The notes under the pieces: model-generated
What the model saw: the letters and a program-made list of their open reading frames with translations, nothing else
Database searches by the model: none
What the model was told of the DNA's origin: nothing
Translations under genes and position numbers: made by a program
Assembly (NCBI GenBank): GCA_009929775.1
Contig: RZZS01000004.1
Coordinates: 1 to 64,000, forward strand
Direction of reading: 5' to 3'
DNA from: Alphaproteobacteria bacterium
GTDB lineage: Bacteria > Pseudomonadota > Alphaproteobacteria > Micavibrionales > Micavibrionaceae
DNA: 64,000 nucleotides
In this document: positions 7,253 through 54,703 of the stretch, one piece after another
Position numbering within the stretch: the first letter of the stretch is position 1
Layout: each line of letters begins with the position of its first letter

Positions 7253-7257
7253 CGGCC

Positions 7258-8580: not shown

Positions 8581-8584
8581 GCGC

Positions 8585-10771
8585 CTACTCTTTCCTCACT
8601 TCAATTTTTCCGCTCGCAAGGACCTCTAGCACCTTGTCGCGCGGACCATCGAGGATGACCTTGCCGAGATCGATGAGGATCAACCGATCGACCATTGGCA
8701 GGAGTTGCTGGCGGTGCGTAATCAGGACAAGGGTCATATCCCCGGCCTGTTGCCTTACGTGGGTGCGGAAGGCCTCCTCGGCCTGCATATCCATCGCGTT
8801 CGTCGGCTCATCGCAGACCAGTACCCGCGGTTTTGTCAGCAGGGCGCGGGCCAGCGCGATGGCCTGTCTCTGTCCCCCGCTCAGTCCCTCCCCGCGTTCG
8901 CCGACCGGCGCGTCGTAGCCCATCGGATGGCGCTGGATGAAATCGTGCACGCCCGCGAGCTTTGCAGCCTCGAGAATTTCCTCGTCACTCGATTGCGGGC
9001 GGCTGATCGCGATGTTTTCACGGACCGTGCCGGTGAACAGCACCACGTCCTGCGCGATATAACCGATGTTCCGGCGCAGGTCGGCCGGGTCGATCTGGCG
9101 GTGGTCGGTATCGTCCACCATAATCGTGCCGCCCGCCGGATCGTAAAGGCCGAGCATCAAACGGGCGATTGTGCTCTTCCCCGAACCGATCCGACCGATA
9201 ATGCCGACCTTTTCCCCGGCATCGATCGTGAAGCTCACGCCGTCGAGAATCGTGCGATCCGTGCCCGGATAGGCGAATTCAACCCTGTCGAAAGCGATTT
9301 TTCCCTTGAGATCAGGACGGTGCAGAAACTGCTTGTTCGCCGGGCGCTCGACCGGCTTGGCCATCACGGCGTTCAGGGTCTTCATCGCGCTCGACGCCTG
9401 ATGGTAGCGGGCGGCGAGGTTGGCGATCTGGCCGATCGGCGCAATCGCGCGGCCGCCGAGAATAACACAGGCGATCAGGGCGCCCATCGTGATCATCTGG
9501 TCGCGTACGAGATACATGCCGAGCAAAACCACAAGAACGGTCGCGCTCTGCTGCAACATAGCAGCGACATTGACGCCAAGCGCTGACACGAACCGCGATT
9601 TCTGACTCCAGACGGCATTCTCTCCGACGATCTCACCGTATTTCGCCCGGAGGCGACCGTCCGCTCCGATGGCCTTGACAGTTTCGAGCCCGTGAATGCT
9701 TTCGACGAGAAGCCCGTGCTTAAACTCGGCGGAACGAACCGACTTGCGAACGAGATTGCGCAACGGGATTTGCAACAGGACGCCCGTGACGATCACAACG
9801 CCGATCAGACTGGCCAGAACAAAGGCGATCGGTCCGCCGAGCAGATAAATTACGAACAGAAACAGCAGCGCGAACGGAAGATCGACAAGCGCGGTAATCG
9901 TCGCCGATGTCATAAAATCACGTACCGAATCGAATTCGCGCAACATGTTGGCGAACACACCGCTCGATGGCGGGCGACCGGCGAGCTTCATGTCCATCAC
10001 CTGGTCGAAAATGCGGCGCGCGGCGATAACGTCGACACGGCGACCGGCAAAATCGATGAAATAGCCGCGCAGCGTCCGTACGACGAAGTCGAACAGGAAC
10101 ACCGTCAGAGCGCCGATGGCCAGAACCCAGCCGGTCGCAATAGCGTTGTTTGGAATAACCCGGTCATAGACGGTCATAACGAAAATCGGCGAGGTCAGGG
10201 CGAACAGGTTGATGAGAATGGCCGCAATAAGGACACGGGCGTAAATCCAGCGGCTGTCCAGAAAAGAACCCCAGAACCAGTGCTTCCCCGACTCATCGGC
10301 AGCGGCGGGTTCAGAATCGCACCGCCCCGCGCGAGAATGAACGAAAATCGAATACCCGGAATAGCCCGCCTCCAGAAGCCCTAGCGACGTGCGACGAACA
10401 TCGTTGTCTTCCGGAGTGAATATCCACGCCGCATCGTCTGCCGGATCGAGCCGCATCAGCACCACGGCCTGCCCGCCATCGAGCACGAGAACCGCCGGAA
10501 GAACGGGCGCGGGAATTTTTCTCAAGGAACGCCTTGTAACACGGCTCCTGAGGCCGATCCGGGCCGCCGCGTCGCAAAAGGTTTGGGGCCGCATCCCGCG
10601 CGCGTCATACGACAGTCCCGCCTTGATGGCATCAGCCGACTTCGCCCGACCGAAATGGCGGGTAAGAAAGACAAGGCAGTCGAGAAGAGGATCGCTACCC
10701 TGCGCTTGCACCTGCGGCGGGGGTGGCGGCTTCTTTATCGTTTTCTGTATGGTCATCGGATGCCGGGACAA
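8585..10771 (-). CDS. Type I secretion ABC transporter with N-terminal C39-like domain (LapB/RtxB type)
   Basis: The protein has 728 residues. Residues about 25-150 form a C39-like domain (DPLLDCLVFLTRHFG) that appears to lack the peptidase catalytic arrangement, as in exporters that bind but do not cleave their cargo. Residues about 170-460 form the six-helix ABC transmembrane domain. The nucleotide-binding domain shows Walker A GRIGSGKST, signature LSGGQRQAIALARALL and Walker B VLVCDEPTNAMD. It should export the large FG-GAP protein across the inner membrane. Its start lies inside the 3' end of the tolC-like gene: the overlap is 77 bases from the first ATG, or 62 bases from an ATG five codons later. 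No later start would preserve the C39-like domain. Confidence 0.94.
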   Translation of the reverse strand: MSRHPMTIQKTIKKPPPPPQVQAQGSDPLLDCLVFLTRHFGRAKSADAIKAGLSYDARGMRPQTFCDAAARIGLRSRVTRRSLRKIPAPVLPAVLVLDGGQAVVLMRLDPADDAAWIFTPEDNDVRRTSLGLLEAGYSGYSIFVHSRAGRCDSEPAAADESGKHWFWGSFLDSRWIYARVLIAAILINLFALTSPIFVMTVYDRVIPNNAIATGWVLAIGALTVFLFDFVVRTLRGYFIDFAGRRVDVIAARRIFDQVMDMKLAGRPPSSGVFANMLREFDSVRDFMTSATITALVDLPFALLFLFVIYLLGGPIAFVLASLIGVVIVTGVLLQIPLRNLVRKSVRSAEFKHGLLVESIHGLETVKAIGADGRLRAKYGEIVGENAVWSQKSRFVSALGVNVAAMLQQSATVLVVLLGMYLVRDQMITMGALIACVILGGRAIAPIGQIANLAARYHQASSAMKTLNAVMAKPVERPANKQFLHRPDLKGKIAFDRVEFAYPGTDRTILDGVSFTIDAGEKVGIIGRIGSGKSTIARLMLGLYDPAGGTIMVDDTDHRQIDPADLRRNIGYIAQDVVLFTGTVRENIAISRPQSSDEEILEAAKLAGVHDFIQRHPMGYDAPVGERGEGLSGGQRQAIALARALLTKPRVLVCDEPTNAMDMQAEEAFRTHVRQQAGDMTLVLITHRQQLLPMVDRLILIDLGKVILDGPRDKVLEVLASGKIEVRKE

Positions 10772-12074
10772 TGTTCAGGGAGCTCTGCAGTTTGCCCATA
10801 CCCGCCAGCACGCCGAAATGCGCCGCAAGCAAGCGGTACTTGGCGCCAATCTGGTCAAGTTTTGCGCTGAAAAGCTGGTTTTCCGACTGAAGCAGCTGCA
10901 GCAGGCTGGCCAGCCCGCCCTCGAACTGTGTGCGGTTTGTCTTGGCGAGATTGTTCATGAGAATAACCCGGCGCACGTAGGTCTCGTTCTGGCGCCCCGC
11001 CGTATCAAGCTCGGCAAACGCAGTACGAATTTCCCTTTCGATCTGGCGCCGGGTTTCATTGACGCGCGCCTGCTGGGAGAGGTACTCGTGCCGGCGGCGA
11101 TCAATTTTGTCGAACTGCTCACCGCCCGTCGCAAAGTTCCAACTCATCCGGATCAACCCGCGCGCATCGACGACCTCCCCGCCGATAATGTCGTCGAGAT
11201 CTTTCTTGTAGTAAGACATTTCAGCGTTGAATTCAGGGTAAAGAGCCCCCTTCTCGACCGCGATCTCGTTTTCGGCGGCTTCGGCCCGCCATTTGGATAT
11301 CCCGAGGGCCGGGTGGTTCTCCATCGCGTCGCTGACAGCCACCGCCTCTTCGGGGATCAGGCTTTCGTTAATCGCCGGAAGCGCCAAACCCCCTTGTGGA
11401 TAATTGCCAACGAGTTCCGCATAGCGGACCCCGGCAACCTCAAGACGCCCCTCGCTCTCAAGCCGGATGTTCTCCAGCAGAATGCGCATGTCTTCCGCCT
11501 GATGCAACTCCGCTTCGTTAGCGGCGCCGCCATCCACCATCGTACGAATCCGGTCAATGTAATCGTCGACCTGGGCCGCATAGGCGGAGATGATTTCTTT
11601 TTCCTCATGGGCGCGAAGAACGCTCAGATAGGCGAGCGCCGTCTGGAGAGCGAGCTCTTCCCGGAGATCGACGATCTGCTCGCTCGCGGCCATACGGCGT
11701 GCGGCGGCAGCATCAATGCGATTTCGCACGCGAAAACCGTCGAACAGCACCTGGGTCAGGGTTACCCCACCCTCGTGCATCCATGAGTAACCGGCCCCTC
11801 GGTCGACGGAAAGACCCCGGCTGGTGGCGTTGTCGCCGTAAACCCTGCCGGTTGCGGCATTCACTCTCAGCCGCGGGAAGTAACCGGAAAACTGTTCTTC
11901 CTGCGACTCGATGGCCGCATCGCGGCTGGCGAGCGCGGCCTCGACGCTCGGGTGATTGTTGAGCGCGGCCAGAACTGCTTCCTCCAGTGATTCGGCCCGG
12001 GCGTCGGGAGACAACAGGAAGAGCCCGGCGAGAACACCGGGTAAAGCGCGAATCTTCGAACGGGACGGTTTCAT
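10695..12074 (-). CDS. TolC-family outer membrane channel protein
   Basis: The protein has 459 residues and an N-terminal signal peptide ending near DARA (about residue 27). It then shows the typical pair of outer-membrane-efflux repeats rich in coiled coil (SLEEAVLAALNNHPSVEAA at the start; the internal repeat begins near residue 235). It forms the outer-membrane duct of the type I exporter. It is the first gene of the minus-strand operon TolC-ABC-HlyD-cyclase. The C-terminus ends in an Ala/Glu-rich tail that overlaps the ABC gene in another frame. The 247 bases separating its start from pntAA must hold divergent promoters. Confidence 0.93.
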   Translation of the reverse strand: MKPSRSKIRALPGVLAGLFLLSPDARAESLEEAVLAALNNHPSVEAALASRDAAIESQEEQFSGYFPRLRVNAATGRVYGDNATSRGLSVDRGAGYSWMHEGGVTLTQVLFDGFRVRNRIDAAAARRMAASEQIVDLREELALQTALAYLSVLRAHEEKEIISAYAAQVDDYIDRIRTMVDGGAANEAELHQAEDMRILLENIRLESEGRLEVAGVRYAELVGNYPQGGLALPAINESLIPEEAVAVSDAMENHPALGISKWRAEAAENEIAVEKGALYPEFNAEMSYYKKDLDDIIGGEVVDARGLIRMSWNFATGGEQFDKIDRRRHEYLSQQARVNETRRQIEREIRTAFAELDTAGRQNETYVRRVILMNNLAKTNRTQFEGGLASLLQLLQSENQLFSAKLDQIGAKYRLLAAHFGVLAGMGKLQSSLNIVPASDDHTENDKEAATPAAGASAG

Positions 12075-43612: not shown

Positions 43613-44401
43613 ATGACCGAAATGCGGCAGTATCAGGTTCCCGGCGCGACGATCTTCGCCTTTGCAAGCGGCCCCCAAAACGCGCCGGTTACCTTGATCT
43701 GGGCGCATGGCTGGGGGCAGTCGCATGCCGCTTTCGACGCGCTGCGCGCACCGTTTTCGAAACATGCCGGCTTCGCCTTCGATTTTCCCGGATTCGGGCA
43801 ATCGCCAGCGCCAGTCGAAGACTGGGGCACTGCCGACTACGCCGACGCCACCGCCAAGATCCTGCGTGGGCTGCCGGGAAAAAAAATATGGGTCGGCCAT
43901 TCATTCGGTTGCCGTGTCGGGATCCAGCTTGCCGCCCGGCATCCGGAGACCGTGGACGGGCTGTTCCTGATTGCCGCCGCGGGCTTGAAGCCCACGCGCC
44001 CAATTGCTCGACAGATTTATATAAAAGCCCGCGTAACCCTTTTCAAAATTCTCAAAAAGACCGTTCCGGAGAGATGCCACCCGGCTCTCTACGAAAGGTT
44101 CGGCAGCACGGATTACAAAAACGCGGGACCGATTCGCGCCCTGTTTGTCAGGGTCGTCAACGAAGACCTGTCCGAAGCCGCATCGAGGATCACCTGCCCC
44201 GTGCAGCTCGTCTACGGCGACAAAGACACCGAAACCCCGCCTGACATCGGCGAACGGTTTGCCCGATTGATGCCCGATTCAAAACTTACCCTGCTTTCAG
44301 GACAAGACCATTACAGCGTTCTCGGCGCCGGACGCCACCCGGTTGCCGGAAAGCTTCAGGAATTTATTTCTCTCGTCACAGGAACACACAACGCGGAATG
44401 A
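43613..44401 (+). CDS. Alpha/beta hydrolase
   Basis: The protein has 262 residues. It shows the oxyanion segment LIWAHGWGQSHAAFD, the nucleophile elbow VGHSFGCRV, the Asp in VYGDKDTETP and the His in GQDHYSVL, so a full catalytic triad is present. There is no signal peptide. It is divergent from ddl and 10 bases ahead of the membrane Mur ligase, with which it is probably co-transcribed. The substrate is unknown; a lipid or peptide ester is possible. Confidence 0.85.
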   Translation: MTEMRQYQVPGATIFAFASGPQNAPVTLIWAHGWGQSHAAFDALRAPFSKHAGFAFDFPGFGQSPAPVEDWGTADYADATAKILRGLPGKKIWVGHSFGCRVGIQLAARHPETVDGLFLIAAAGLKPTRPIARQIYIKARVTLFKILKKTVPERCHPALYERFGSTDYKNAGPIRALFVRVVNEDLSEAASRITCPVQLVYGDKDTETPPDIGERFARLMPDSKLTLLSGQDHYSVLGAGRHPVAGKLQEFISLVTGTHNAE

Positions 44402-44411
44402 TACCATCGAC

Positions 44412-46004
44412 ATGTCAGAGCTCGCACTTACCTTACTGATTCCGATAGCATTTATCATTTTCTCCACAAGGCGCCTGCTGACATATCTACATGTTTACCA
44501 ACAGGAGGAATATGATACGCGGCGTTTTTTGCGCTGGATGCTCGAAAAGCGGGCTTTCGACAAGCGCCTGACGGTTGCGCTCGCCGCCATATCGGCGCTT
44601 ATGCTCGTCATGCCGCCCGTCCAGTGGATCGGGGCTGGTCTGCTCGCGGCATCTTTCCTTGTGTTCGCGCTGCGTGAATCAGACCCGAGACGGAATTCGA
44701 AGAAAAAACTGATCCTGACGCCGCGCGCCCGGCGGATTCTTGCGCTTGCGCTTTTCTTTAACGCCGTAATGGCCGCAGGCGCCGCCTTTCCCCACATCCC
44801 GCTATTCTGGATTGTTCCGGTGCAGATCATTCCGTTTACGCTGGCTCTTGCCAATTTTGCCCTCAAGCCCCTTGAGGATACGATTCAGAAGAAATTCCGG
44901 GATGAAGCGCGCGCGAAGATAACAGAAATGAATCCGACAGTTATCGGCATCACTGGAAGTTTTGGAAAAACTTCGGTCAAACACATCCTCGGTCATATTC
45001 TCGGGACGGTCGCCCCGACGCTCATAACACCGGGCAGCGTCAATACGCCGATGGGAATTGCCCGAATCGTCCGCGAACAGCTCGAGCCGCGCCACAAATA
45101 TGCGGTCATTGAGATGGGTGCCTACGGTCCCGGTTCGATCGCCCGCCTGTGCCAGTTGACGCCGCCGGATTTCGGCGCTGTCACCGCGATCGGCCACGCG
45201 CATTACGAACGTTTCAAGACCCTTGAGACCGTTGCCACCGCCAAGTTCGAGATGGCCGACGCCGTTGCCTCCAAAGGGGGGCAAATGGTCGTCCACGAGG
45301 ATACACTTCGATATGAAAAACCTGGCGCGTTGCATAAAGAGCGTCCTGACATGTTCACGATCGTTGGCACAGGGGAAACTGCCCATGTCCGCATCGTCGG
45401 TAATCGCCAGACCGGGCACGGGATACAGGTGGACATCGTCTGGCAGGGCGAACGCTTTACACTGGAAGCCCCGCTTTACGGCAGCCACCACGGCACCAAC
45501 ATGGCGATTGCGTTCGGCATCGCCTGCAATCTCGGTCTGCCTGTCAAACATGTTCTGACAGCCCTCAAGACGACACCCCAGATTGCCCACCGGCTCGAGA
45601 TCAAGCCTCGGGGCGCGAAAGGGCTACTCATCGACGACGCCTATAACTCCAACCCGTCCGGCTTTCGCGCCGCGCTCGATATGCTGGACTTTCTCGCGAA
45701 CGGTCGGCGGCGTATCCTCATCACGCCGGGCATGGTCGAACTCGGCAAGGCCCATGACGAGGAACATGAAAAACTAGGCGATTACGCCGCCCGGAAAACC
45801 GACATCGTTATCGTCGTGCAGCCACAAAGAATCCGCAGCTTCGTGGAAGCCTGCTCGCGAGCGGAAACCGGCTTTCACCAGACTGTGGGGGTCGATTCGT
45901 TTGCGCAGGCACAGACGTGGCTTGCACAGAACGGGCATGAAGACGACGTTATCCTGCTCGAAAATGATCTACCTGATATATATGAAAAACTTCCCAGACT
46001 CTAG
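44412..46004 (+). CDS. Membrane-anchored Mur ligase with MurF-type motifs
   Basis: The protein has about 530 residues from the ATG at 44412 (MSELALTLLIP). Four or five membrane helices fill the first 170 residues in place of the MurF substrate-binding N-domain (the segment YLHVYQQEEYDTRRFLRWML follows the first). The Mur ligase core then shows GITGSFGKTSVKHIL (ATP loop), VIEMGAYGPGSIARL, IGHAHYERFKTLETVATAKFE (region of the carbamylated Lys), IDDAYNSNPSGFRAALDML and TPGMVELGKAHDEE. These match MurF at each catalytic site. It probably ligates a dipeptide or amino acid to a cell-wall precursor at the membrane. It sits opposite the long ddl gene. Confidence 0.85.
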   Translation: MSELALTLLIPIAFIIFSTRRLLTYLHVYQQEEYDTRRFLRWMLEKRAFDKRLTVALAAISALMLVMPPVQWIGAGLLAASFLVFALRESDPRRNSKKKLILTPRARRILALALFFNAVMAAGAAFPHIPLFWIVPVQIIPFTLALANFALKPLEDTIQKKFRDEARAKITEMNPTVIGITGSFGKTSVKHILGHILGTVAPTLITPGSVNTPMGIARIVREQLEPRHKYAVIEMGAYGPGSIARLCQLTPPDFGAVTAIGHAHYERFKTLETVATAKFEMADAVASKGGQMVVHEDTLRYEKPGALHKERPDMFTIVGTGETAHVRIVGNRQTGHGIQVDIVWQGERFTLEAPLYGSHHGTNMAIAFGIACNLGLPVKHVLTALKTTPQIAHRLEIKPRGAKGLLIDDAYNSNPSGFRAALDMLDFLANGRRRILITPGMVELGKAHDEEHEKLGDYAARKTDIVIVVQPQRIRSFVEACSRAETGFHQTVGVDSFAQAQTWLAQNGHEDDVILLENDLPDIYEKLPRL

Positions 46005-46014
46005 GAGACCTGAA

Positions 46015-46785
46015 ATGACGCGATTGCCTGCCGCCTTTCTGATCCTGGCACTTGCCGCACTGCCCTTGCAGGCATCGGCCGACAACGCAACGCAGGCCCG
46101 CACCATAACAACAACGGGCGACGCGGAAATCCGCGTTGTGCCGGATGAGATACTGATTTCATTCACCGCCGAGAACCGAAGACCGGATCTGGCTGACGCG
46201 CAACAGGAAAACGACAGGACAGTCAAATCGCTGATCGCTTACCTTACGAACGAACTTAAAATCGAAAGCGAGTACATCCAGACCGATATGGTCGCAGTCG
46301 AACCTGCTTACCGGCAATGCCACTACGACGATGAACTGAGCGGCGCATGCAGCCCGCTCGAAATCGTGTATTTTTCCGTCCGTAAAGGCATCCAGATCCG
46401 CCTCAAGAAGCCGGACTTGTACGAACCGGTTGTGACGAAGGCTCTTAAACTCGGCGTCACACACATCGATAATGTTCGGTTTGTCACCAGCGAACTCCGC
46501 AAGCACCGGGACCGGGCGCGCGAAATGGCGGCCACGGCTGCCCGCGAGAAAGCAGACGCCGTCGCCGGAACGCTCGGCATGACGGTCGCCAAACCGGTGA
46601 CCATTCATACCGGAAATATCGATGTTTTCTACGGCCATAACGGCCCCAGACGGGGTTCACAAACCATGATGGCACAAAACGCCCTGCAGGAAGTCGCCGG
46701 AAGCGCGGGAGGCAACGATGCCGCACTGGCTCTCGGCCAGATCATTATCCGCGGACAGGTGACAGTCACGTTCGAAATGGAGTGA
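46015..46785 (+). CDS. SIMPL-domain (DUF541) periplasmic protein
   Basis: The protein has 256 residues from the ATG at 46015, which has AGGAG seven bases upstream; a longer frame from 45901 is rejected. A signal peptide ends at QASA-DN (about residue 22). The DUF541 pattern is seen in ITTTGDAEIRVVPDEILISF, a central KPDLYEPVVTKALKLGVTHIDNV and ALGQIIIRGQVTVTFEME at the end. These proteins (E. coli YggE type) are periplasmic, and their biochemical role is unclear. It follows the membrane Mur ligase by 10 bases. Confidence 0.9.
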   Translation: MTRLPAAFLILALAALPLQASADNATQARTITTTGDAEIRVVPDEILISFTAENRRPDLADAQQENDRTVKSLIAYLTNELKIESEYIQTDMVAVEPAYRQCHYDDELSGACSPLEIVYFSVRKGIQIRLKKPDLYEPVVTKALKLGVTHIDNVRFVTSELRKHRDRAREMAATAAREKADAVAGTLGMTVAKPVTIHTGNIDVFYGHNGPRRGSQTMMAQNALQEVAGSAGGNDAALALGQIIIRGQVTVTFEME

Positions 46786-46817
46786 TCAAGGTCCGACGGA
46801 CTCCGTCCCGTTTCGAA

Positions 46818-46840
46818 AGAAAAAAAGGCGCCAGTCGCCT
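46818..46840 (-). terminator. Terminator of the small membrane-protein pair
   Basis: On the minus strand AGGCG-(5)-CGCCT is followed by a run of seven T and more T-rich sequence. The stem begins at the stop codon of the 101-residue gene. Confidence 0.6.
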
Positions 46841-47145
46841 CAGCTGTTGTCCGGCTTTCGATCCTGATCGACGGGAGCACCGATACTCCGGACTAGAGTC
46901 ATGAACGCATGCTCATCATCGAACAGGAACTTGAACGGCGACTTCCCCGATTGCCGGTAGGTATAAAAAATAAAAATCACAAAAACGAAAATAGCGAACA
47001 AAAGCGACGAGCAGATCGAAAGTACGAATGTGGCAAGAAAGAAAAAAACAATTGGCGGATAACCCGTCAAAACGGACCCAACACAACTGACGGTGATCGC
47101 TGCCGTTCCGAAAATAGCGATATTACGTTCCGACTCGTCTAGCAT
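46840..47145 (-). CDS. Small membrane protein, paralogue of the upstream gene
   Basis: The 101-residue protein has two long hydrophobic helices (IFGTAAITVSCVGSVLTG and VFFFLATFVLSICSSLLFAIFVFVIFIFY), then a basic turn YTYRQSG and an acidic tail. The helices align with those of the upstream gene (both end in a Y-T-Y/T-K/R-Q-S turn), so the two are paralogues. It overlaps that gene by seven bases, suggesting coupled translation. No known family was recognised. Confidence 0.65.
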   Translation of the reverse strand: MLDESERNIAIFGTAAITVSCVGSVLTGYPPIVFFFLATFVLSICSSLLFAIFVFVIFIFYTYRQSGKSPFKFLFDDEHAFMTLVRSIGAPVDQDRKPDNS

Positions 47146-47723
47146 AGTACCCTTCGTTCTCTGGCATAACGTTCGCTCAATTGCCGTCCGCCCATCCTTC
47201 CCAGTTCCCGTCGCAGATCACCACCCAGCGGGTCATTTTGCAACCCGCGTGCAGCGGACTCCCGGCCTAAAGCACCAAGAACAGGTTGTGAAGCACGGTC
47301 CAGCCTTTTTCTGATACCCCATTTTTGATTCGCCGCACCGAAGATTTCCGCGCACTCCACGCCAATATGTCGCAAAACGACGCCCGCGTCTGTCGAATCA
47401 ATATTACGAAGAATCGTAACCAGCGCCTGCAAAGGGACCCGGAGCACAATCTTTATGTCTCGCAGACATGATTGAAGGGTCATTTTCTCATCACCGCCGA
47501 TACCGAAAACACCAGTTCCCGATGATTGCTTATAAGTCGTATAGAGCACAGCAAATGCGAAGACAACAGCACCGACGACGAGCGACCCGAGAAGAGTTGC
47601 AAACGTCGCGGCTATAAGAAAAGAAATCGGGGTCATATTCGTCGCGGCGGCGCCAAGAACGGAAATGACGATAACCAGCAAACCGCACGAAATGATCATT
47701 CCTTCCGAATCTCTCTGTGCCAT
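47139..47723 (-). CDS. Membrane protein of unknown function with soluble C-terminal domain
   Basis: The protein has 194 residues. Two membrane helices (IISCGLLVIVISVLGAAA and SFLIAATFATLLGSLVVGAVV) lead into a helical cytoplasmic tail of about 120 residues (MTLQSCLRDIKIVLRVPLQALVTIL). The N-terminal part is paralogous to the downstream 101-residue protein. The gene lies after murB in the same orientation, 115 bases away, with a run of eight G in between. I do not recognise the family; a membrane-scaffold or toxin-like role would be guesswork. Confidence 0.65.
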   Translation of the reverse strand: MAQRDSEGMIISCGLLVIVISVLGAAATNMTPISFLIAATFATLLGSLVVGAVVFAFAVLYTTYKQSSGTGVFGIGGDEKMTLQSCLRDIKIVLRVPLQALVTILRNIDSTDAGVVLRHIGVECAEIFGAANQKWGIRKRLDRASQPVLGALGRESAARGLQNDPLGGDLRRELGRMGGRQLSERYARERRVLC

Positions 47724-47796
47724 GAATCTTCCTTTTATGTTCAGGATATCGAGGCAAACGCCGGCCGGTCTGCATCGAAAAAATTCTTTGAACGCA

Positions 47797-47804
47797 CCCC
47801 CCCC
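47797..47804. repeat. Homopolymeric tract of eight C (eight G on the minus strand)
   Basis: Eight C lie between the murB stop and the start of the 194-residue membrane gene, in the possible promoter or leader of the latter. Confidence 0.85.
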
Positions 47805-47838
47805 TCAATAACCCTGTCATTTCTAAAATAAAATTCCG

Positions 47839-48759
47839 TTAACTCCGTTCGCCTATTCTTCTGATTTCCCAACGCAACTCGACGCCGCTGCGGGCCTGAA
47901 CGCGGCGACGCACCTCCTCCCCCAGATCCTCGAGGTCAGCCGCACAGGCAGTCCCTGTATTTATCATGAAATTGCAGTGCATCTCGCTCATTTTTGCCCC
48001 GCCAACCGTCAATCCACGGCATCCGGCCTCGTCAATCAGTTGCCACGCTTTATAACCTTCCGGGTTCGCGAAGGTCGAGCCGCCGGTCCGCTCGTGGATC
48101 GGCTGGGTCGATTCCCGCTGCGCCTTGATTTCGGCAAGCCTCGAGCGAATTGTTTCAGGGTCTCCCTTTGCTCCGCGCAAAACGCAATGCGTCAGGATCG
48201 TCCCTTCCGACAGGTTGGTATAACGATAGGCCATTTGCAAGCTCTCCGACGTATACGCAACGATTTCGCCACCTTTCGTGACGGCCTGCGCCTCGACAAG
48301 GACGCTTTTCATGTCCTGCCCGTAAGACCCGGCGTTCATCTTCAACGCGCCGCCGATTGTACCGGGAATGCCAACCAGAAACTCCATTCCGGTGATGCCC
48401 GCGTCCGCCGCAGCATTCGCAACACCCGCGTCCAGAACAGCCGCACCGACCTTGAAGGTGATGTCGTCCAGTGGCTCGATGAAATTGAACTCGCGCCCCA
48501 GCCGAACCACAATGCCGCGCACGCCGCCGTCGCGAACAATAGTGTTCGACATGACGCCAACGGTCGTCACAGGAATGTCCTCCGGGCACGCTTTCAGGAA
48601 CTGCGCCAGATCCCGCTCATCGACCGGTTTGAACAGCACATCCGCCGTCCCGCCGGTCCGGAACCACCCGACAGCGCCGAGCGGCGCGTCTTCAGTCATG
48701 CGGCCCCGGACGGGAGGAAGGTCGATGATGCGGGTTTTGGTTTTTGCGCGCATGGCCAC
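47839..48759 (-). CDS. murB: UDP-N-acetylenolpyruvoylglucosamine reductase
   Basis: The protein has 306 residues from the GTG at 48759, or 304 from the ATG at 48753. FAD-binding segments are TVGVMSNTIVRDGGVRGIVV and EFLVGIPGTIGGALKMNAGSYG; the catalytic Ser lies in ERTGGSTFANPEG and the C-terminal Glu in KMSEMHCNFMINTG. It reduces enolpyruvyl-UDP-GlcNAc to UDP-MurNAc. The family usually has SNLLVRDGG where this has SNTIVRDGG, a small change. It starts nine bases after murC. Confidence 0.96.
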   Translation of the reverse strand: MAMRAKTKTRIIDLPPVRGRMTEDAPLGAVGWFRTGGTADVLFKPVDERDLAQFLKACPEDIPVTTVGVMSNTIVRDGGVRGIVVRLGREFNFIEPLDDITFKVGAAVLDAGVANAAADAGITGMEFLVGIPGTIGGALKMNAGSYGQDMKSVLVEAQAVTKGGEIVAYTSESLQMAYRYTNLSEGTILTHCVLRGAKGDPETIRSRLAEIKAQRESTQPIHERTGGSTFANPEGYKAWQLIDEAGCRGLTVGGAKMSEMHCNFMINTGTACAADLEDLGEEVRRRVQARSGVELRWEIRRIGERS

Positions 48760-48768
48760 CCAAACCCT

Positions 48769-50262
48769 CTAAAACCCGTCAGTTCGACCGGAGGAACGTC
48801 GAAGCAGGTGCAAAGTGGAAAAATCCGACCCCGCCAATTCCTCCAGTTCCCCCGGCAACGCATACGCCCATTTCGTAATGTCACCGGCGCCAAGACAAAT
48901 GACATAATCTCCTTCGCCCGCCATGGCGGCAATTTCGGGGGCAAGAGCCTCACGGAAGGGAAGAACCCTCACGTCGCGATGGCCGTGCGTGCGGATTCCT
49001 TCGGCGAGCGCTTCCTTGCTCGCGCCCTCAAGCGAGTCCTCCCCGGCCGCATACACATCTGCCACAAAGACGCTGTCCGCGTCATTGAAACATGTACAGA
49101 AATCCTCGAACAGACTCGACAAGCGGGAATAGCGGTGTGGTTGCATGACCGCAATGAGCTTGCCACCCGTTTCCTCGACCGCCATGCGCCCGGCTTTCAA
49201 AACGGCGGCGATCTCGACCGGGTGATGGCCGTAATCGTCGATGATCGTAATGCCGCTCACGACTCCGGTCCGGGTAAAGCGCCGCTTGACACCGGAAAAA
49301 TTCTCCAGCGCCCGCTTGATGAGAGGTTGTTTCATGCCAAGTTCAAGCCCGATCGCGATCGCAACCAGAGAATTCTGGACATTATGCTGGCCAATCATCG
49401 GCAGATACACGTCATGGAAAACCGTCTCGACGCCATCATTCAGCGCCGCCGCAACATGCACGTCGAACAGCGAACCGCCGTTCCGGACCCGGATATTGCC
49501 TGCCCGTACTTCGGCCTGAGGCGTAAACCCGTAGGTGATGATTTTTCGATCCATGATTGTCGCTATAAGCGACTGGACCTCCGGGTGGTCGAGGCACATT
49601 ACAGCGAACCCGTAAAAAGGAATATTTTCAATGAACTGCCTGAAGGCCGCCTTGATATTTCCAATATTTCCGTAGTGATCGAGATGCTCAGGGTCGATAT
49701 TGGTGACAATGGCGATGGCCGAAGGAAGGCGCGTGAAGGTCCCGTCACTCTCGTCCGCCTCGACAACCATCCAGTCGCTCTCGCCGAGCCGCGTGTTCGT
49801 TCCATAGGCATTGACGATGCCGCCATTAATCACCGTCGGATCGAAACCGCCCTCTTCCAGCATCGCACCTACCATCGAAGTGGTTGTCGTTTTGCCGTGC
49901 GTCCCGGCGATGGAGACCGACCATTTGAGCCGCATCAGCTCGGCCAGCATCTCGGCCCGGCGCACGACCGGAACTTTAAGCGCGCGCGCCGCGACGAGTT
50001 CCGGATTGTCCTGTTTTATCGCCGATGAAAACACGACGACGCCTGGCAGCGAACCGTCCTCTGCCTGAAGGTTTTTTGCGTCATGACCGACAGAAACGTG
50101 AATACCGTTACCGCGAAGTCTCTGGACATTGGCACTCTCTGACAGATCCGATCCCTGCACGGTATAGCCAAGCGTGTTCAGCACCTCGGCGATCCCGCTC
50201 ATGCCGATCCCGCCGATGCCGATGAAATGAAGCGTGCCGATGTCGAGGGGTAGCGCGCGCAT
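48769..50262 (-). CDS. murC: UDP-N-acetylmuramate--L-alanine ligase
   Basis: The protein has 497 residues. The N-terminal Rossmann motif is [20 protein letters not shown] loop [26 protein letters not shown]-like [14 protein letters not shown]-terminal [18 protein letters not shown] and [13 protein letters not shown]. All the catalytic segments are intact. It adds L-Ala to UDP-MurNAc in the cytoplasm. In the usual dcw order it follows murG directly; here a plus-strand lipoprotein gene and a repeat lie between. Confidence 0.97.
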
Positions 50263-50302
50263 GAATATCTTTCCGTCTATACGTAAATTTGCTTGAATGT
50301 TC

Positions 50303-50335
50303 TTTTTAACGCGAAGTAGCGAAGGCGCGAAGTTC
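50303..50335. repeat. Copy of the 'gcgaaggcgcgaag' repeat upstream of murC
   Basis: The stretch TTTTTAACGCGAAG and the following AGCGAAGGCGCGAAG match the reverse complement of part of the repeat in the binding-protein signal peptide (15579-15668), sharing 14 bases exactly. It is short and its ends are unclear. Confidence 0.4.
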
Positions 50336-50454
50336 TTTCTGCGATATTCATATTCAAATCGTAAATCAAACCTGATAGAAAATATCTTGCTTTTTCTATA
50401 ATGTTGTGCATTTCTTCTAACTTACCGAGAGCTTGTAACAGGGAGAACTTAACA

Positions 50455-50928
50455 ATGGAAAATGGCGTAACAAATGGATTTAACGTCGGTGCAAATTGGA
50501 AGAAAGTTGCCATTCCGACCGCACTTGCTTTTGGACTTGCTGGCGGACTGGGTGGATGCACAGACGCAGACATAGCTTCCGCTAACCTTTCACAAGCTGC
50601 CGATAATTTTGAAATCAATCGACGAACTGTTTTCTATAACGGCATTACCGATTCGTACATGCTAACCATAGAGGGAAGATGCAGTATTCGAGCTGACGGT
50701 ATGGACCGGCAACTGGAAGTAACCTGCAAAACTGGCGAAAAAGAATTTAAGAAGCACTTCCTTGGCCTCTCGGACAATGTAACCTACTTCTCCGAGCAAA
50801 TTGGTGGCGCAGACGTTAGCACTTACCACCATCGCGTAATATTTAAACCTCAAGCCATTGTTCCTGACATAGACTTTCGTGGTGATGCGAGAGAGTTGCA
50901 GAAAGCTGTAACGCCCACGCCGGATTAA
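50455..50928 (+). CDS. Phage-type 'beta-sandwich' lipoprotein
   Basis: The protein has 157 residues from the ATG at 50455, with GGGAGAA upstream; the frame from 50401 adds 18 residues. A hydrophobic N-terminus ends in lipobox-like GGLGGC (Cys near 35). The rest (ANLSQAADNFEINRRTVFYN, GITDSYMLTIEGRCS, KHFLGLSDNVTYF, FKPQAIVPDIDFRG) closely resembles small lipoproteins I recall from phages of actinobacteria and other hosts. This resemblance is from memory. Base composition is more AT-rich than in the flanking murC and murG, and the gene is on the opposite strand, so horizontal gain is likely. A role in superinfection exclusion or envelope modification is possible. Confidence 0.75.
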   Translation: MENGVTNGFNVGANWKKVAIPTALAFGLAGGLGGCTDADIASANLSQAADNFEINRRTVFYNGITDSYMLTIEGRCSIRADGMDRQLEVTCKTGEKEFKKHFLGLSDNVTYFSEQIGGADVSTYHHRVIFKPQAIVPDIDFRGDARELQKAVTPTPD

Positions 50929-50944
50929 TCGTTCTTTTGGCAGG

Positions 50945-50975
50945 CGGGGGCACAGTCCGATTCCTTGTGTCCCCG
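50945..50975. terminator. Hairpin between convergent lipoprotein and murG genes
   Basis: CGGGGGCACA and TGTGTCCCCG pair over 10 bases (one G-U) around an 11-base loop. There is no clear T run on either strand, so termination activity is uncertain. Confidence 0.4.
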
Positions 50976-50982
50976 AACATGC

Positions 50983-52143
50983 TCAAAAATCCTCCCGGCC
51001 CTGGGTCAAATCGAAATTCTTCTGTTCCTGTTTGTCCCACCCGCTGGCCAGCGCGGTGACAAGATTGCCGAGCCGCCTTGCGGCATCGGGACGACCGCAG
51101 TCGCGGGCGCTCTCGGCAGCGCGGAAAAGGGATTGCGGGTTTTGCAGGAAGGTCTCGATCCGCGCCATCAGCGCTTCCGGCGTAAAGCCCTCTTCGGTCA
51201 TCGTCCATGCCCCGCCGCTGTCAGAGACGTGGTCTGCGTTGATTTTCTGCTGGTGATCAGCGTGATGCGGATAGGGAACGAAGATTGCCGGACGCCCTGC
51301 AGCGGTGATTTCCGCGACGCTGGACGCGCCGGAGCGTGAAATCACCAGATGCGACCAGCCGAGCAATTCGGCCATGTTCTCGAAAAACGGCGAAATGGTC
51401 GCCTCGATACCGGCTTCGGCATAGACAGCACGGGTCGTATCGACGTTTTCGGGACGGCATTGCTGCATCACGCGCAGGCGGGCGCGGTAGGCGCTGTGAA
51501 GGCTGGAGAGCGCCTTCGGCACAACATGGGAAAACACGGCAGCGCCGAGCGATCCGCCAACCACCAGAATATTGAGCGGCCCGTCAGGGCGCATCGAGGC
51601 GTAGGGACGGGTGTAAAGAGCCGCGATATCGCCGCGCACCGGGTTGCCGGTAACGACCGTGCGCACAGCGTCCGCTTCCTGCAGGCCGTAGACGTCGGCG
51701 TAAGAGACAGCGATCCGATCGGCTTTCGGAGCCAGCATCGCGTTGGCACGCCCGAGGATCGCGTTTTGTTCGTGGATAACGGTCGGAATTTCCATCTTTT
51801 GCGCCACAAATACGGCCGGATACGATGGATAGCCTCCGAATCCGACCACGACGCGGGGTTTCATCCTGCGTACCAGCTTGTACCCTTGCGCTATTCCCAC
51901 CGCAAGTGCACCTGCTCCCTTGATCCGGCCAAGAACGCCGCCGCCGATCGTCCCGGCGGAAAGCACGTGCACATCGACGCCTTTAAACTGGTTCTCAAAC
52001 TTTTTGCCGCGCTGGTCCGTCGCCAGCACCACAAGGTAGCCGCGGGACAGAAGGTCCGAGGCAAGCGCCTGCGCCGGAAACATGTGGCCGCCCGTACCTC
52101 CGGCGCTCAACAAAATCAGTTCGGATCGATCGTCCATTTTCAC
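50983..52143 (-). CDS. murG: Undecaprenyl-PP-MurNAc-pentapeptide GlcNAc transferase
   Basis: The protein has 386 residues from the GTG at 52143 (GTGA overlap with ftsW) or 384 from the ATG at 52137. The N-terminal LSAGGTGGHMFPAQALA is the lipid-I binding glycine loop; GFGGYPSYPAV and IHEQNAILGRAN follow; the UDP-GlcNAc site is LVISRSGASSVAEITAAGRPAIFVPYPHHADHQQ. It makes lipid II at the inner membrane. The C-terminus has an extra Gln/Asp-rich tail. It shares the murD-ftsW-murG overlapping operon. Confidence 0.96.
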   Translation of the reverse strand: MKMDDRSELILLSAGGTGGHMFPAQALASDLLSRGYLVVLATDQRGKKFENQFKGVDVHVLSAGTIGGGVLGRIKGAGALAVGIAQGYKLVRRMKPRVVVGFGGYPSYPAVFVAQKMEIPTVIHEQNAILGRANAMLAPKADRIAVSYADVYGLQEADAVRTVVTGNPVRGDIAALYTRPYASMRPDGPLNILVVGGSLGAAVFSHVVPKALSSLHSAYRARLRVMQQCRPENVDTTRAVYAEAGIEATISPFFENMAELLGWSHLVISRSGASSVAEITAAGRPAIFVPYPHHADHQQKINADHVSDSGGAWTMTEEGFTPEALMARIETFLQNPQSLFRAAESARDCGRPDAARRLGNLVTALASGWDKQEQKNFDLTQGREDF

Positions 52144-53300
52144 GCCTTGCCTTTCGTCCGCAGCGTCAGCCCGCCGCGCGCAATCCCCGAACGCGGCTGC
52201 CTGCGAGTCAGCGCGAGCACAATGCCCATCGCGAACGCCGAGGCCAGCAGCGAGGAGCCGCCATAGCTGATAAAGGGCAGTGTCATCCCTTTTGTTGGCA
52301 AAATGTTGACGTTGGAGCCCATATGCACAAATGTTTGCAACCCGAACATAGTCAGAATGCCGCCCGCCGCAAGCACGGCGAACAGACGTTCGTGACCGGC
52401 CAGACGCTGGAAACCGCGCAGCAGGATGAACCCGTAAATACCCATCAGAATCAGAATGAACACCAGCCCGAGTTCCTCTCCCGCAACCGCAAAAACAAAG
52501 TCGGCATGTGCGTCGGGGATCGTCATCTTGACTTCGCCCTGCCCCGGACCGGTCCCGATGACGCCACCGTTTCTGAAGGCGGACAGCGCCTTTTCAATCT
52601 GGTAATTGTCGCCGCTCGCCGGATCCAGAAAGCGGTCGATCCGGCTCTGGACGTGATCGAACGCGAAGTACGCCGCCAGAATCATCAACAGGCCCCCAAC
52701 TCCGGCAAGGGCCATGTAACGAAACGGCAGACCCGCGAGAAAAACCTGTACGCCCATCACAAACGTCACGACGACCGTCATGCCAAAATCCGGCTGAAGG
52801 AGAAGCAGAGTTACGACAACCGCATAAAGAACGCCACACATTATGTACCAGGCCGGAAAGTCCGGCTTTTCCTTTTGCCATGCGATCAGCCAGGCCGCGA
52901 CGACGATGAAGGCGGGTTTCACGAATTCGCTCGGCTGAAGCGAAAAACCGAATAGCGGAATCCAGCGCTGCGCGCCCTTGATTTCGGATCCGGTGAAAAG
53001 AACCGCAACCATCAACAGGACGCCCACGCCCAGCACGACACTCGAAGTCCGCCATATCCAGCGGGTATCCAGCATGGAAACGCCGATCATGATGACAAGC
53101 GCGGGAACCAGGAAGACGATATGGCGGACAACGAAATGAAACTGAGCCGCACCAATACGCTCGGCGACCGGCGGACTGGCGGCGGCAACGAGCGCGACCC
53201 CGACGACGACAAGCATCAAAAGAGCCGCCAGCATGCCGCGGTCGACCGTCCACCACCATCGCCCGAGCACCGAGCGGTCGGTGCGCGAGAATGCTTTCAT
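52140..53300 (-). CDS. ftsW: Septal peptidoglycan glycosyltransferase FtsW
   Basis: The SEDS protein has 386 residues and about ten membrane helices. Family motifs are GAQRWIPLFGFSLQPSEFVKPA, the QPDFGMTVVV loop with the catalytic-region Asp, and ILPTKGMTLPFISYGGSS near the end. It polymerises lipid II at the septum with FtsI. Its start overlaps the murD stop and its stop overlaps murG, each by four bases. Confidence 0.96.
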   Translation of the reverse strand: MKAFSRTDRSVLGRWWWTVDRGMLAALLMLVVVGVALVAAASPPVAERIGAAQFHFVVRHIVFLVPALVIMIGVSMLDTRWIWRTSSVVLGVGVLLMVAVLFTGSEIKGAQRWIPLFGFSLQPSEFVKPAFIVVAAWLIAWQKEKPDFPAWYIMCGVLYAVVVTLLLLQPDFGMTVVVTFVMGVQVFLAGLPFRYMALAGVGGLLMILAAYFAFDHVQSRIDRFLDPASGDNYQIEKALSAFRNGGVIGTGPGQGEVKMTIPDAHADFVFAVAGEELGLVFILILMGIYGFILLRGFQRLAGHERLFAVLAAGGILTMFGLQTFVHMGSNVNILPTKGMTLPFISYGGSSLLASAFAMGIVLALTRRQPRSGIARGGLTLRTKGKA

Positions 53301-54703
53301 AACGAATTCTCCGCAGACAGCGCCTCGACAAGCCGCGCGAATACATCGCCCCGATGTTCGAAACTGTCGAACTGGTCGAAAGAGGCACAGGCCGGGGACA
53401 GCAATACGGTTCCCGTGCCCCCCGGCTTGCCCCGCTCGGCCTGGGCCATATGGTGAGCTTCGGCGACCGCACGGTCGAGGGTCTGGCTGAAATTATGCGG
53501 TACCCCGTGCTTGTCGAGCCAGCTCGCAAATTCCTCCATCGCCTCGCCAATCAGGAAGGCATGACGGATCCGGTCGATGAACGGCTCAAGCCCGTTCAGA
53601 CCGCCCTCCTTTGGCCTCCCGCCAACGATCCAGTAAATGTTGCGATAGCAGGAAAGCGCCTTTCCGGCCGCATCCGCGTTCGTTGCCTTGCTGTCGTTGA
53701 TATAGGCGACGCCGTTAACCAGCCGGATCGCCTGCTGGCGATGCGGCAGACCGGGATAGGTTTTGACCGCCTCAAGAATGCTCGCCGGAGACAAGCCGAA
53801 GCTGCGAGCCACCGCGTAGGCCGCACACAAATTCTGGGCATTGTGCGCACCGGGAAGCGCTGGAAACGACGTCCCGCCAACGTCAGCTCCTTCACCATCG
53901 ATATCGTCGATCAAACGGTCCTCGAGGACATAGACGCCCCCCGGCGCTTTCTCGTCGGCCGAGACCGGCAGCCCGGTCTCCATGCGCCCTTCGGCTTTGA
54001 CGTTTTCGAAAATGCCCGCACAGTATTTATCGTCAACCCCGATGACGGCAACGCCGCCGTCCCGCTTAAACATGGCCGCTTTCGCCGCGACGTAACGCTC
54101 CATTGAACCGTGGCGGTCGATGTGATCCGGCGTTATGTTGAGGAGTACACCGATATCCGGGCGGAATGTCGGGCAGAGATCCATCTGGTACGAAGAGATT
54201 TCGAGGACGATCACGCCGCATTTCGGCGACAGTGTCAAAGCAAGCGCAGCCTTGCCGATATTGCCGCCCACCGAAGCCTCAATCCCGCAAGCATTAAGAA
54301 TATGGCCAATGAGGGCCGTCGTGGTCGATTTGCCGTTTGTACCTGTCACACCGATCACGCGACGTTCGTGCCCCGAGCGGTGCAGGACCTCGAGATCGCC
54401 GATGACCTCGACCCCGGCCTCCCGCGCCTTTTCGACAAGGCTGTGCGGCTTCGGGTGATAAAGCGGCACGCCGGGCGCGACGACGAGACAACCGAGCTTT
54501 GCGAAATCCTCCGCGTAGAGATCCTGAACCGCCGCTCCGGCCTTCCCGGCTTCGCCGCGGCGGGCTTCGCTGTCGTCCCACGCGAGCACGACCGCACCCG
54601 CCCCGACCAGCGCCCTGACGGCAGCGATCCCGGAAATCCCGAGGCCGAAAACGGCCACAGGCTTTCCGTCCAGCGTTTGCACGAATTTCGATACGTCGAT
54701 CAT
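53297..54703 (-). CDS. murD: UDP-N-acetylmuramoyl-L-alanine--D-glutamate ligase
   Basis: The protein has 468 residues. N-terminal AVFGLGISGIAAVRALVGAG binds the UDP moiety; ATP loop GVTGTNGKSTTTALIGHIL; LEISSYQMDLCPTFRPDIGVLLNITPDHIDRHG carries the catalytic His and Glu; VAYINDSKATNADAAGKAL and WIVGGRPKEGGL complete the C-terminal domain. It adds D-Glu to UDP-MurNAc-L-Ala. An 82-base gap separates it from mraY, the largest gap in the upstream half of the cluster. Confidence 0.97.
   Translation of the reverse strand: MIDVSKFVQTLDGKPVAVFGLGISGIAAVRALVGAGAVVLAWDDSEARRGEAGKAGAAVQDLYAEDFAKLGCLVVAPGVPLYHPKPHSLVEKAREAGVEVIGDLEVLHRSGHERRVIGVTGTNGKSTTTALIGHILNACGIEASVGGNIGKAALALTLSPKCGVIVLEISSYQMDLCPTFRPDIGVLLNITPDHIDRHGSMERYVAAKAAMFKRDGGVAVIGVDDKYCAGIFENVKAEGRMETGLPVSADEKAPGGVYVLEDRLIDDIDGEGADVGGTSFPALPGAHNAQNLCAAYAVARSFGLSPASILEAVKTYPGLPHRQQAIRLVNGVAYINDSKATNADAAGKALSCYRNIYWIVGGRPKEGGLNGLEPFIDRIRHAFLIGEAMEEFASWLDKHGVPHNFSQTLDRAVAEAHHMAQAERGKPGGTGTVLLSPACASFDQFDSFEHRGDVFARLVEALSAENSL

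What the first reader, a model, noticed from the sequence alone, without database searches (positions are those of the whole stretch)
50455..50928. Phage-like lipoprotein gene embedded between murG and murC
The protein strongly recalls small beta-sandwich lipoproteins encoded by phages (memory-based), has a lipobox-like motif, and is AT-rich relative to its neighbours on the opposite strand. Its placement between two peptidoglycan genes is odd. It may have been captured from a phage and kept as a superinfection-exclusion or envelope protein.
Basis: partly seen in the sequence, partly recalled or inferred. Interest (0 to 1): 0.5.

Follow-up and report, generated by a model that had tools for sequence, protein, structure and literature searches.

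The report
Stray phage lipoprotein gene on chromosome
A gene for a small, probably fat-anchored envelope protein that hundreds of bacterial viruses carry sits by itself between two cell-wall genes of this bacterium, and a minority of its relatives carry a copy at other places in their chromosomes; what the protein does is not known, but a shield against phage infection is the leading guess.

Summary
It lies between murG and murC, is AT-rich (46.6% GC against 57.5-61.4%), and ten neighbouring proteins show no phage hallmark. All 33 columns at >=95% in 114 close relatives are intact.

The tools add: (1) it is not unique to this site. 8 of 142 genomes searched in the order hold a copy, against 1 of 385 (its own) sampled across the class. 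The order's copies are single genes at different sites; 4 of 8 share a leader motif seen in 0 of 247 other rows (pattern chosen after the fact). (2) Copies that look lone also occur in very distant bacteria. (3) The public label 'recombination directionality factor' is almost certainly wrong.

Superinfection exclusion stays plausible and untested. A beta-sandwich was not confirmed: the model shows a helix and five strands, with no reliable fold match.

The parts
50455..50928 (+). Predicted lipoprotein of the Phage_VG64 family (PF25682 / phrog_478), 157 aa; the only copy found in its genome
50455..50556 (+). Leader of 34 residues before the presumed lipid-anchored Cys, with an FN..NWKK motif shared with three other copies of the order
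   Evidence: pattern in 4 of 8 order copies, 0 of 169 viral rows, 0 of 78 other genome rows; pattern written after seeing the order copies
50557..50559 (+). Codon of Cys35, predicted lipidation site (lipobox LGGC)
50557..50925 (+). Mature domain: modelled helix plus five strands, two conserved inner Cys (C76, C91; disulfide presumed), C-terminal RGDA..AVTP tail
50440..50445 (+). AGGGAG, ribosome-binding-like motif 9 bp before the ATG
   Evidence: read directly
50263..50454 (+). AT-rich upstream region (34.9% GC) between the divergent murC and the gene; presumed own promoter (TATAAT at 50397-50402 by eye, no -35 partner)
   Evidence: the promoter scan found none
50945..50975 (.). Hairpin between the convergent ends of the gene and murG, possible shared terminator (no T-run)
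   Evidence: fold of 50929-50982 -20.6 kcal/mol, z -2.24, 6 of 200 shuffles as good; the terminator scan found none
50983..52143 (-). murG (neighbour, convergent)
48769..50262 (-). murC (neighbour, divergent)

Best explanation
It is an intact, single-gene chromosomal copy of a phage-borne envelope lipoprotein (Phage_VG64 family), probably its own transcription unit, in a permissive junction between murG and murC. Inferred working: the protein is exported by Sec, lipidated at Cys35 and cleaved, then anchored in a membrane. Its small helix-plus-five-strand domain, held by one disulfide, binds an envelope partner that many bacteria share. In phages it would be made during infection and make the cell refractory to further phage entry (superinfection exclusion or a related envelope lock). 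Bacteria that keep a lone copy would gain a one-gene barrier to phage infection. Shown: family, lipobox, intactness, lone context, patchy distribution in the order. Inferred: phage-to-chromosome direction, own promoter, membrane anchoring, disulfide, partner and the exclusion role.
For: Family: PF25682 3e-53 and phrog_478 2e-51; 794 of 50,697 phage records, hosts from Mycobacterium to Vibrio. Lipobox-like motif (loose pattern) in 163 of 169 viral and 84 of 87 genome rows, exactly two inner Cys in 166 of 169 and 86 of 87 (some viral contigs are counted twice). All 33 columns at >=95% in 114 other rows are kept in the window copy (those rows are close relatives). It falls mostly among viral rows. 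Lone: neighbours are mur/fts genes, and of ten neighbouring proteins only one has a PHROG match, a generic esterase/lipase. Patchy like an accessory trait: 8 of 142 in the order, 1 of 385 across the class. Precedent for the mode: T5 Llp, a phage lipoprotein that blocks further infection through FhuA (PMC9586334, passages seen), and Ltp of S. thermophilus phages (PMC3952083, abstract and outline seen).
Against: I found no paper on any member; searches for the family names returned 0. T5 Llp acts on one receptor, whereas the window copy is 69-75% identical over the mature part to copies in phages of Paenibacillus, Acinetobacter and Rhizobium and up to 71% to mycobacteriophage ones, which fits a receptor-specific block poorly. 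No PADLOC match; defence genes are not clearly more frequent next to lone copies than 4.5 kb or more away. In nine phage stretches the gene is not adjacent to an annotated integrase or repressor. The diverged copies of the order lack some residues that are invariant in alignment A1: RR is changed in L206-L208, SDN in L204, L205, L207 and L208 (sequences), so the constraint is not absolute. Fold comparison gave nothing reliable.
Confidence: 0.4

Rival explanations
1. The protein is a phage-derived envelope modulator with a non-exclusion role, for example binding a conserved cell-wall or membrane factor to protect the envelope during infection; hosts keep it as an accessory lipoprotein.
For: Shared blocks across phages of hosts with one or two membranes suggest a common cellular partner. 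In the nine stretches read the gene lies mostly among replication or small unassigned genes, in one (phiSA_BS2) a few genes downstream of tail genes, not next to an annotated lysogeny gene. No clear defence association of lone copies.
Against: The patchy distribution (8 of 142, 1 of 385) fits an accessory trait better than a general physiological one. No direct evidence for any such partner.
Confidence: 0.35
2. (On origin; compatible with either function.) It is a bacterial lipoprotein that phages acquired from cells; the window copy is an old, mostly lost order gene rather than a captured phage gene.
For: 4 of 8 order copies share a leader pattern absent from 169 viral rows, and one clade of seven order copies is not rejected (p-AU 0.338). 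After L034, the next nearest row by path is an order copy (L122). Lone-looking copies occur in Poribacteria, Acidobacteria, Binatia, Parcubacteria and others. The trees are unrooted and poorly resolved.
Against: Copies in genomes are rare (1 of 385 in the class; 0 of 14 control genomes) while 794 of 50,697 phage records hold one. The window row sits mostly among viral rows. GC and GC3 are foreign.
Confidence: 0.2
3. It is a recombination directionality factor (excisionase), as the PHROG and RefSeq labels say, left by a decayed prophage.
For: The phrog_478 description and product names in RefSeq phage records.
Against: It is an exported lipoprotein by sequence. Phage Fredward holds, about 6 kb away from the family member gp74, another gene annotated 'RDF protein' (gp53). 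Members occur in SPO1 and a Twortvirinae phage, known to be strictly lytic (recalled). No integrase or phage hallmark gene among ten neighbours of the window copy.
Confidence: 0.02
4. It is a non-functional or near-neutral relic recently dropped into a permissive junction.
For: Foreign composition; enlarged junctions in relatives; rarity in the class.
Against: Open frame, ribosome-binding-like motif and 33 of 33 conserved columns kept.
Confidence: 0.1

Closest known systems
Phage_VG64 family (Pfam PF25682; phrog_478; e.g. gene 64 of mycobacteriophage D29)
   Same: Full-length match, lipobox, conserved NLSxAADNFEIxRRxVFYNG and SDNVTYF blocks, two inner Cys
   Different: Single gene on a bacterial chromosome without phage hallmark genes beside it; 34-residue leader against a median shortest leader of 18 in 167 viral rows
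T5 Llp / Cor superinfection-exclusion lipoproteins
   Same: Small phage lipoprotein; Llp and Cor also share an intramolecular disulfide (PMC9586334 passages); T5 is a lytic phage (recalled)
   Different: A sequence search of the PDB chains returned three weak hits, none of them Llp. Llp acts on one outer-membrane receptor; this family also occurs in phages of Gram-positive hosts
Ltp-type superinfection-exclusion lipoproteins (Streptococcus thermophilus TP-J34)
   Same: Host-surface phage lipoprotein (PMC3952083 abstract)
   Different: The abstract places ltp in the lysogeny module; Ltp is mainly helical (recalled) whereas this model has five strands; the only Pfam hit of the window protein is PF25682
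YgdR/YgdI-like small lipoproteins (family name DUF903 recalled)
   Different: None is among the 50 rows shown for the better model and there is no sequence match; all Z values are in the range the tool calls uninformative

Membership tests
Phage_VG64 (PF25682) | Score over Pfam's curated cut-off across the domain | tested here: met
   179.4 bits against a cut-off of 27, profile 2-127 of 127
Phage_VG64 (PF25682) | Conserved residues of the family kept | tested here: met
   33 of 33 columns at >=95% in 114 other rows, chosen from close relatives
Prokaryotic lipoprotein | Signal peptide with lipobox and Cys | tested here: met
   LGGC before Cys35, by reading the sequence and a simple pattern; no signal-peptide program was run
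Prokaryotic lipoprotein | Actual lipidation and membrane location | not testable with these tools
   needs labelling or fractionation
Prophage or prophage remnant | Phage structural, integration or lysis genes next to it | tested here: not met
   mur/fts neighbours; of ten neighbouring proteins, one generic esterase/lipase PHROG match
Recombination directionality factor | Cytoplasmic integrase partner; the phage's RDF | tested here: not met
   exported lipoprotein by sequence; another annotated RDF in Fredward; members in SPO1 and a Twortvirinae phage
Superinfection-exclusion lipoproteins (Llp, Cor, Ltp) | Sequence relationship | tested here: inconclusive
   the only Pfam hit is PF25682 and the only strong PHROG hit is phrog_478 (phrog_33279 at E=0.028); no Llp among PDB sequence hits; no direct pairwise comparison was made
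Superinfection-exclusion lipoproteins (Llp, Cor, Ltp) | Blocks infection by further phages | not testable with these tools
   needs phage challenge
YgdR-like (DUF903) lipoproteins | Same fold | tested here: inconclusive

The most novel reading that the evidence does not exclude
A one-gene, phage-derived immunity factor acting on a widely shared envelope component: a bare lipoprotein cassette that settles at terminators between housekeeping genes, recurrently, in bacteria from Alphaproteobacteria to Parcubacteria and Poribacteria, and blocks phage entry whatever the receptor.
Probability: 0.15. Interest if true: 0.75.

Novelty: new member of a known kind. Interest (0 to 1): 0.42.

Why it matters
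The family is a widely shared phage protein for which I found no tested function (searches). The chromosomal copy here is 69-75% identical over its mature part to copies in phages of Paenibacillus, Acinetobacter and Rhizobium, so its partner may be common to many bacteria. Lone chromosomal copies suggest that bacteria keep the gene without the phage, which makes its function testable by simple expression or deletion. The 'RDF' label in reference phage genomes misleads annotation.

Tried and rejected
RDF label: rejected. Prophage remnant: rejected. Flanking repeats as insertion marks: two short direct-repeat families, no inverted pairs. Promoter and intrinsic-terminator scans: none found (shuffle means 1.0 and 0.8). 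Rfam over 46000-53500: nothing. In the viral library three hits passed 1e-3, the best a 'Lipoprotein' of Corynebacterium phage Darwin at 56% identity. So no fold is claimed. Defence-island test: PADLOC on 99 near neighbours and 97 far neighbours of 26 lone loci matched 54 and 48 families, only the first 25 of each shown. Near hits include Cas3e (1.3e-165), HEC-03B (1.2e-112), NsnB, AriA and a SAVED_TIR model in two proteins; far hits include pVip (4.9e-88), RT_UG29, MzaA and mad2. I see no clear excess; the test is weak. Papers: family names 0 hits; I saw titles and abstract starts only in the listings, and one search returned none. Direction of transfer: trees too poorly resolved. Empty sites: of four junctions tried, rpsA gave a clean occupied/empty pair, eno gave variable sites, tsf and prs showed none; three further rpsA genomes were fetched but not compared.

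The two viral scans overlap, so some contigs count twice among the 169 viral rows. Near-identical rows were left out of trees. Junction distances count only genes found on one strand of the stretch; murE-murF was left out of the comparison because 13 of its 16 gaps exceed 150 bp and 3 are strongly negative, which I take to reflect my murF query ends; counted as a control it would reverse the comparison. The choice of junctions was made. One search used 27 junctions from 30 murG loci (L003 is the window; L022 and L023 had no murC). The 'lone' class is my own rough judgement from ORF size and BLAST hits to viral-contig ORFs; a few loci judged lone had 1-3 such hits. One near protein and ten far ones were not scanned.

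Full report
What is there. window:50455-50928(+) is an open frame of 157 codons and a stop with an AGGGAG motif 9 bp upstream. The product begins with a 34-residue leader ending in the lipobox LGGC; Cys35 would be lipidated. It matches Pfam PF25682 Phage_VG64 over the whole model (3e-53) and phrog_478 (2e-51). No NCBIfam or PADLOC model matches. It is the only copy found in its genome. Its neighbours are murG and murC, with murB and ftsW beyond them. The gene is on the opposite strand to these four: divergent from murC, convergent with murG, with a 31-nt hairpin (fold of the 54-nt gap -20.6 kcal/mol, 6 of 200 shuffles as good) between the convergent ends. Its GC (46.6%) and GC3 (41.8%) stand out from the mur/fts genes (57.5-61.4%; 67-72%).

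The family. tblastn finds it in 794 of 50,697 phage records, most from Mycobacterium (326), Gordonia (79), Bacillus (78), Streptococcus (49) and Staphylococcus (47) phages, and also from Vibrio, Erwinia, Proteus, Acinetobacter, Rhizobium and Pseudomonas phages; it is in 34 of 72,556 plasmid records. The window copy is 75.2% identical (residues 35-142) to that of Paenibacillus phage PG1, 72.5% to Acinetobacter phage BS46, 69% to Rhizobium phage 16-3 and 71% to mycobacteriophage SirPhilip, but about 50% to SPO1 and 36-41% to the staphylococcal and streptococcal copies listed. In a 51-row alignment of close relatives 21 columns are invariant, including the lipid Cys, the two inner Cys and the motifs RR and SDN. 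Over 115 mature rows the window is 58-76% identical to the others. Of the rows collected, 163 of 169 viral and 84 of 87 genome rows have a lipobox-like motif, and 166 of 169 and 86 of 87 hold exactly two inner Cys.

The public label. PHROGs and many RefSeq phage records call the family a 'site-specific recombination directionality factor RDF'. In phage Fredward the family member (gp74) carries that name while another gene, gp53, about 6 kb away, is annotated 'RDF protein'. The family is present in SPO1 and a Twortvirinae staphylococcal phage, which are strictly lytic (recalled), and the protein has an export signal. I regard the label as wrong. In the nine phage stretches read the gene lies mostly among replication or small unassigned genes, for example next to or one gene from a DnaB-like helicase in D29 and Fredward and near Sak4 and a sliding clamp in 16-3; in phiSA_BS2 it lies a few genes downstream of tail genes. 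In none is it adjacent to an annotated integrase or repressor, though the repressor is about 3 kb away in Fredward and 5.3 kb in 16-3.

The junction. In 20 relatives with wide stretches fetched, the murG-murC gap was over 150 bp in 5 (212-806 bp), 150 bp or less in 13, and overlapping or rearranged in 2. The murC-murB gap was over 150 bp in 4 of 19, with one more pair 4.5 kb apart. The junctions murF-mraY, murD-ftsW, ftsW-murG and mraY-murD had 3 enlarged of 74. 9 of 39 against 3 of 74 gives Fisher p = 0.003; the choice was made after seeing the data, and murE-murF, whose measured gaps were unusable, was left out and would reverse the comparison if counted. The larger murG-murC gaps hold different ORFs in different genomes: PAS-like, methyltransferase-like and TRIC/UPF0126-like proteins recognised by eye. 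The contents of the murC-murB gaps were not examined. So the site is probably permissive, and closeness to peptidoglycan genes says little about function.

The order's own copies. Only the window's genome had the family among 58 near relatives including itself, but an order-wide search found it in 8 of 142 genomes, its own included. An even sample of the class found it in 1 of 385, its own. Taking 381 as the number of class genomes outside the order (my estimate; a few of the sample belong to the order), 7 of 141 against 0 of 381 gives Fisher p about 9e-5. The copies are single genes at different sites: next to eno, rpsA, prs and tsf (names, positions), murG here, and three unnamed sites. In 7 of 8 the downstream neighbour is convergent by the ORF lists; the eighth (L204) is unclear. 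A leader motif occurs in 4 of 8 order copies and in 0 of 169 viral and 0 of 78 other genome rows (pattern written after seeing the order copies). An AVTP tail is found in the window copy, in four other order loci and in 12 of 169 viral rows. The more diverged order copies lack some residues that are invariant in A1: RR changed in L206-L208, SDN in L204, L205, L207 and L208 (sequences). One clade of seven order copies is not rejected (p-AU 0.338), but the best tree puts the window row in a group of 6 viral rows and one genome row (bootstrap 89 / SH-aLRT 58). One pair of congeners 88% identical around rpsA shows an occupied and an empty site: about 635 bp against 99 bp between matching flanks, the difference being the gene plus a short upstream stretch, with a similar hairpin-like stretch downstream in both and no other gene. 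In the genus with the eno copy, five other members were measured at that junction: one has 67 bp, one 326 bp with only very short ORFs, and three hold other ORFs. At tsf and prs no clean empty site was seen.

Lone copies elsewhere. A scan of GTDB genomes returned 149 relatives, of which 80 were kept. Some lie on contigs that, by length, also appear in the viral collection (L160, L178). I judged 26 as lone, two of them order copies, and scanned 99 of their neighbours: 35 PHROG families matched at 1e-8, and none of the 25 shown is a head, tail, terminase, integrase or lysis family. Examples: between miaA and miaB in a Parcubacterium; beside malate dehydrogenase in a Poribacterium; near leuD in one gammaproteobacterial MAG and an exopolyphosphatase-like gene in another. 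A MAG contig can be misbinned, so single cases are weak; the pattern over several phyla is stronger.

How it may work. Export, lipidation and anchoring are read from the sequence. The better model gives a helix (mature residues 3-16) and five strands, with block pLDDT 77-92 over the first 90 residues and a less certain tail. The blocks shared by phages of hosts with one and with two membranes suggest a common partner; this was not mapped on the model surface. The most likely use, given T5 Llp, Cor and Ltp as precedents, is to make the cell refractory to further phage entry; because the sequence is shared across such different hosts, a step at the cytoplasmic membrane or cell wall is more likely than masking one receptor. 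This is inference; I give it 0.4, with a non-exclusion envelope role close behind at 0.35.

Verdict. The finding is real and somewhat more interesting than a stray gene because of its copies across the order and in distant phyla, but it belongs to an already catalogued phage family of unknown function.

Noticed in passing
L009, L012, L020 (murG-murC junctions of relatives): The same junction holds other single ORFs in other genera: PAS-like, methyltransferase-like and TRIC/UPF0126-like (recognised by eye), as if the spot takes up single genes repeatedly.
   Followed up: partly
L310, L311, L314 (eno junction of relatives): The junction that holds the phage-type lipoprotein in one genome holds RNase H-like or histidine-phosphatase-like ORFs (recognised by eye) in congeners, and only 67 bp in L313.
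   Followed up: partly
window 46840-47145 and 47139-47723, - strand: Two adjacent small membrane-type ORFs that look like paralogues by eye, next to murB, with no Pfam or PHROG match.
   Followed up: partly
window 44343-46004, + strand: A further Mur-ligase-like gene (Mur_ligase_M and _C) outside the murE-murB run.
   Followed up: no
window about 50308-50345: A short intergenic stretch (cgcgaag..gaaggcgcgaag) whose translated form (REGAK) also appears in the murG-murC gaps of L009 and L026, perhaps a dispersed intergenic repeat.
   Followed up: no
phrog_478 and RefSeq phage records: The label 'site-specific recombination directionality factor RDF' on this lipoprotein family appears to be a propagated misannotation.
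   Followed up: yes
L132 near 10391-11335: A lone copy in a gammaproteobacterial MAG lies directly beside two TIR-like genes (by eye); one search lists a SAVED_TIR model matched by two of the pooled neighbours, not traced to these.
   Followed up: partly
L170 near 7010-9607: A Cas3-like ORF (by eye) lies just upstream of a lone copy in a Chloroflexi MAG; one search lists Cas3e at 1.3e-165 for one pooled neighbour, not traced to it.
   Followed up: no
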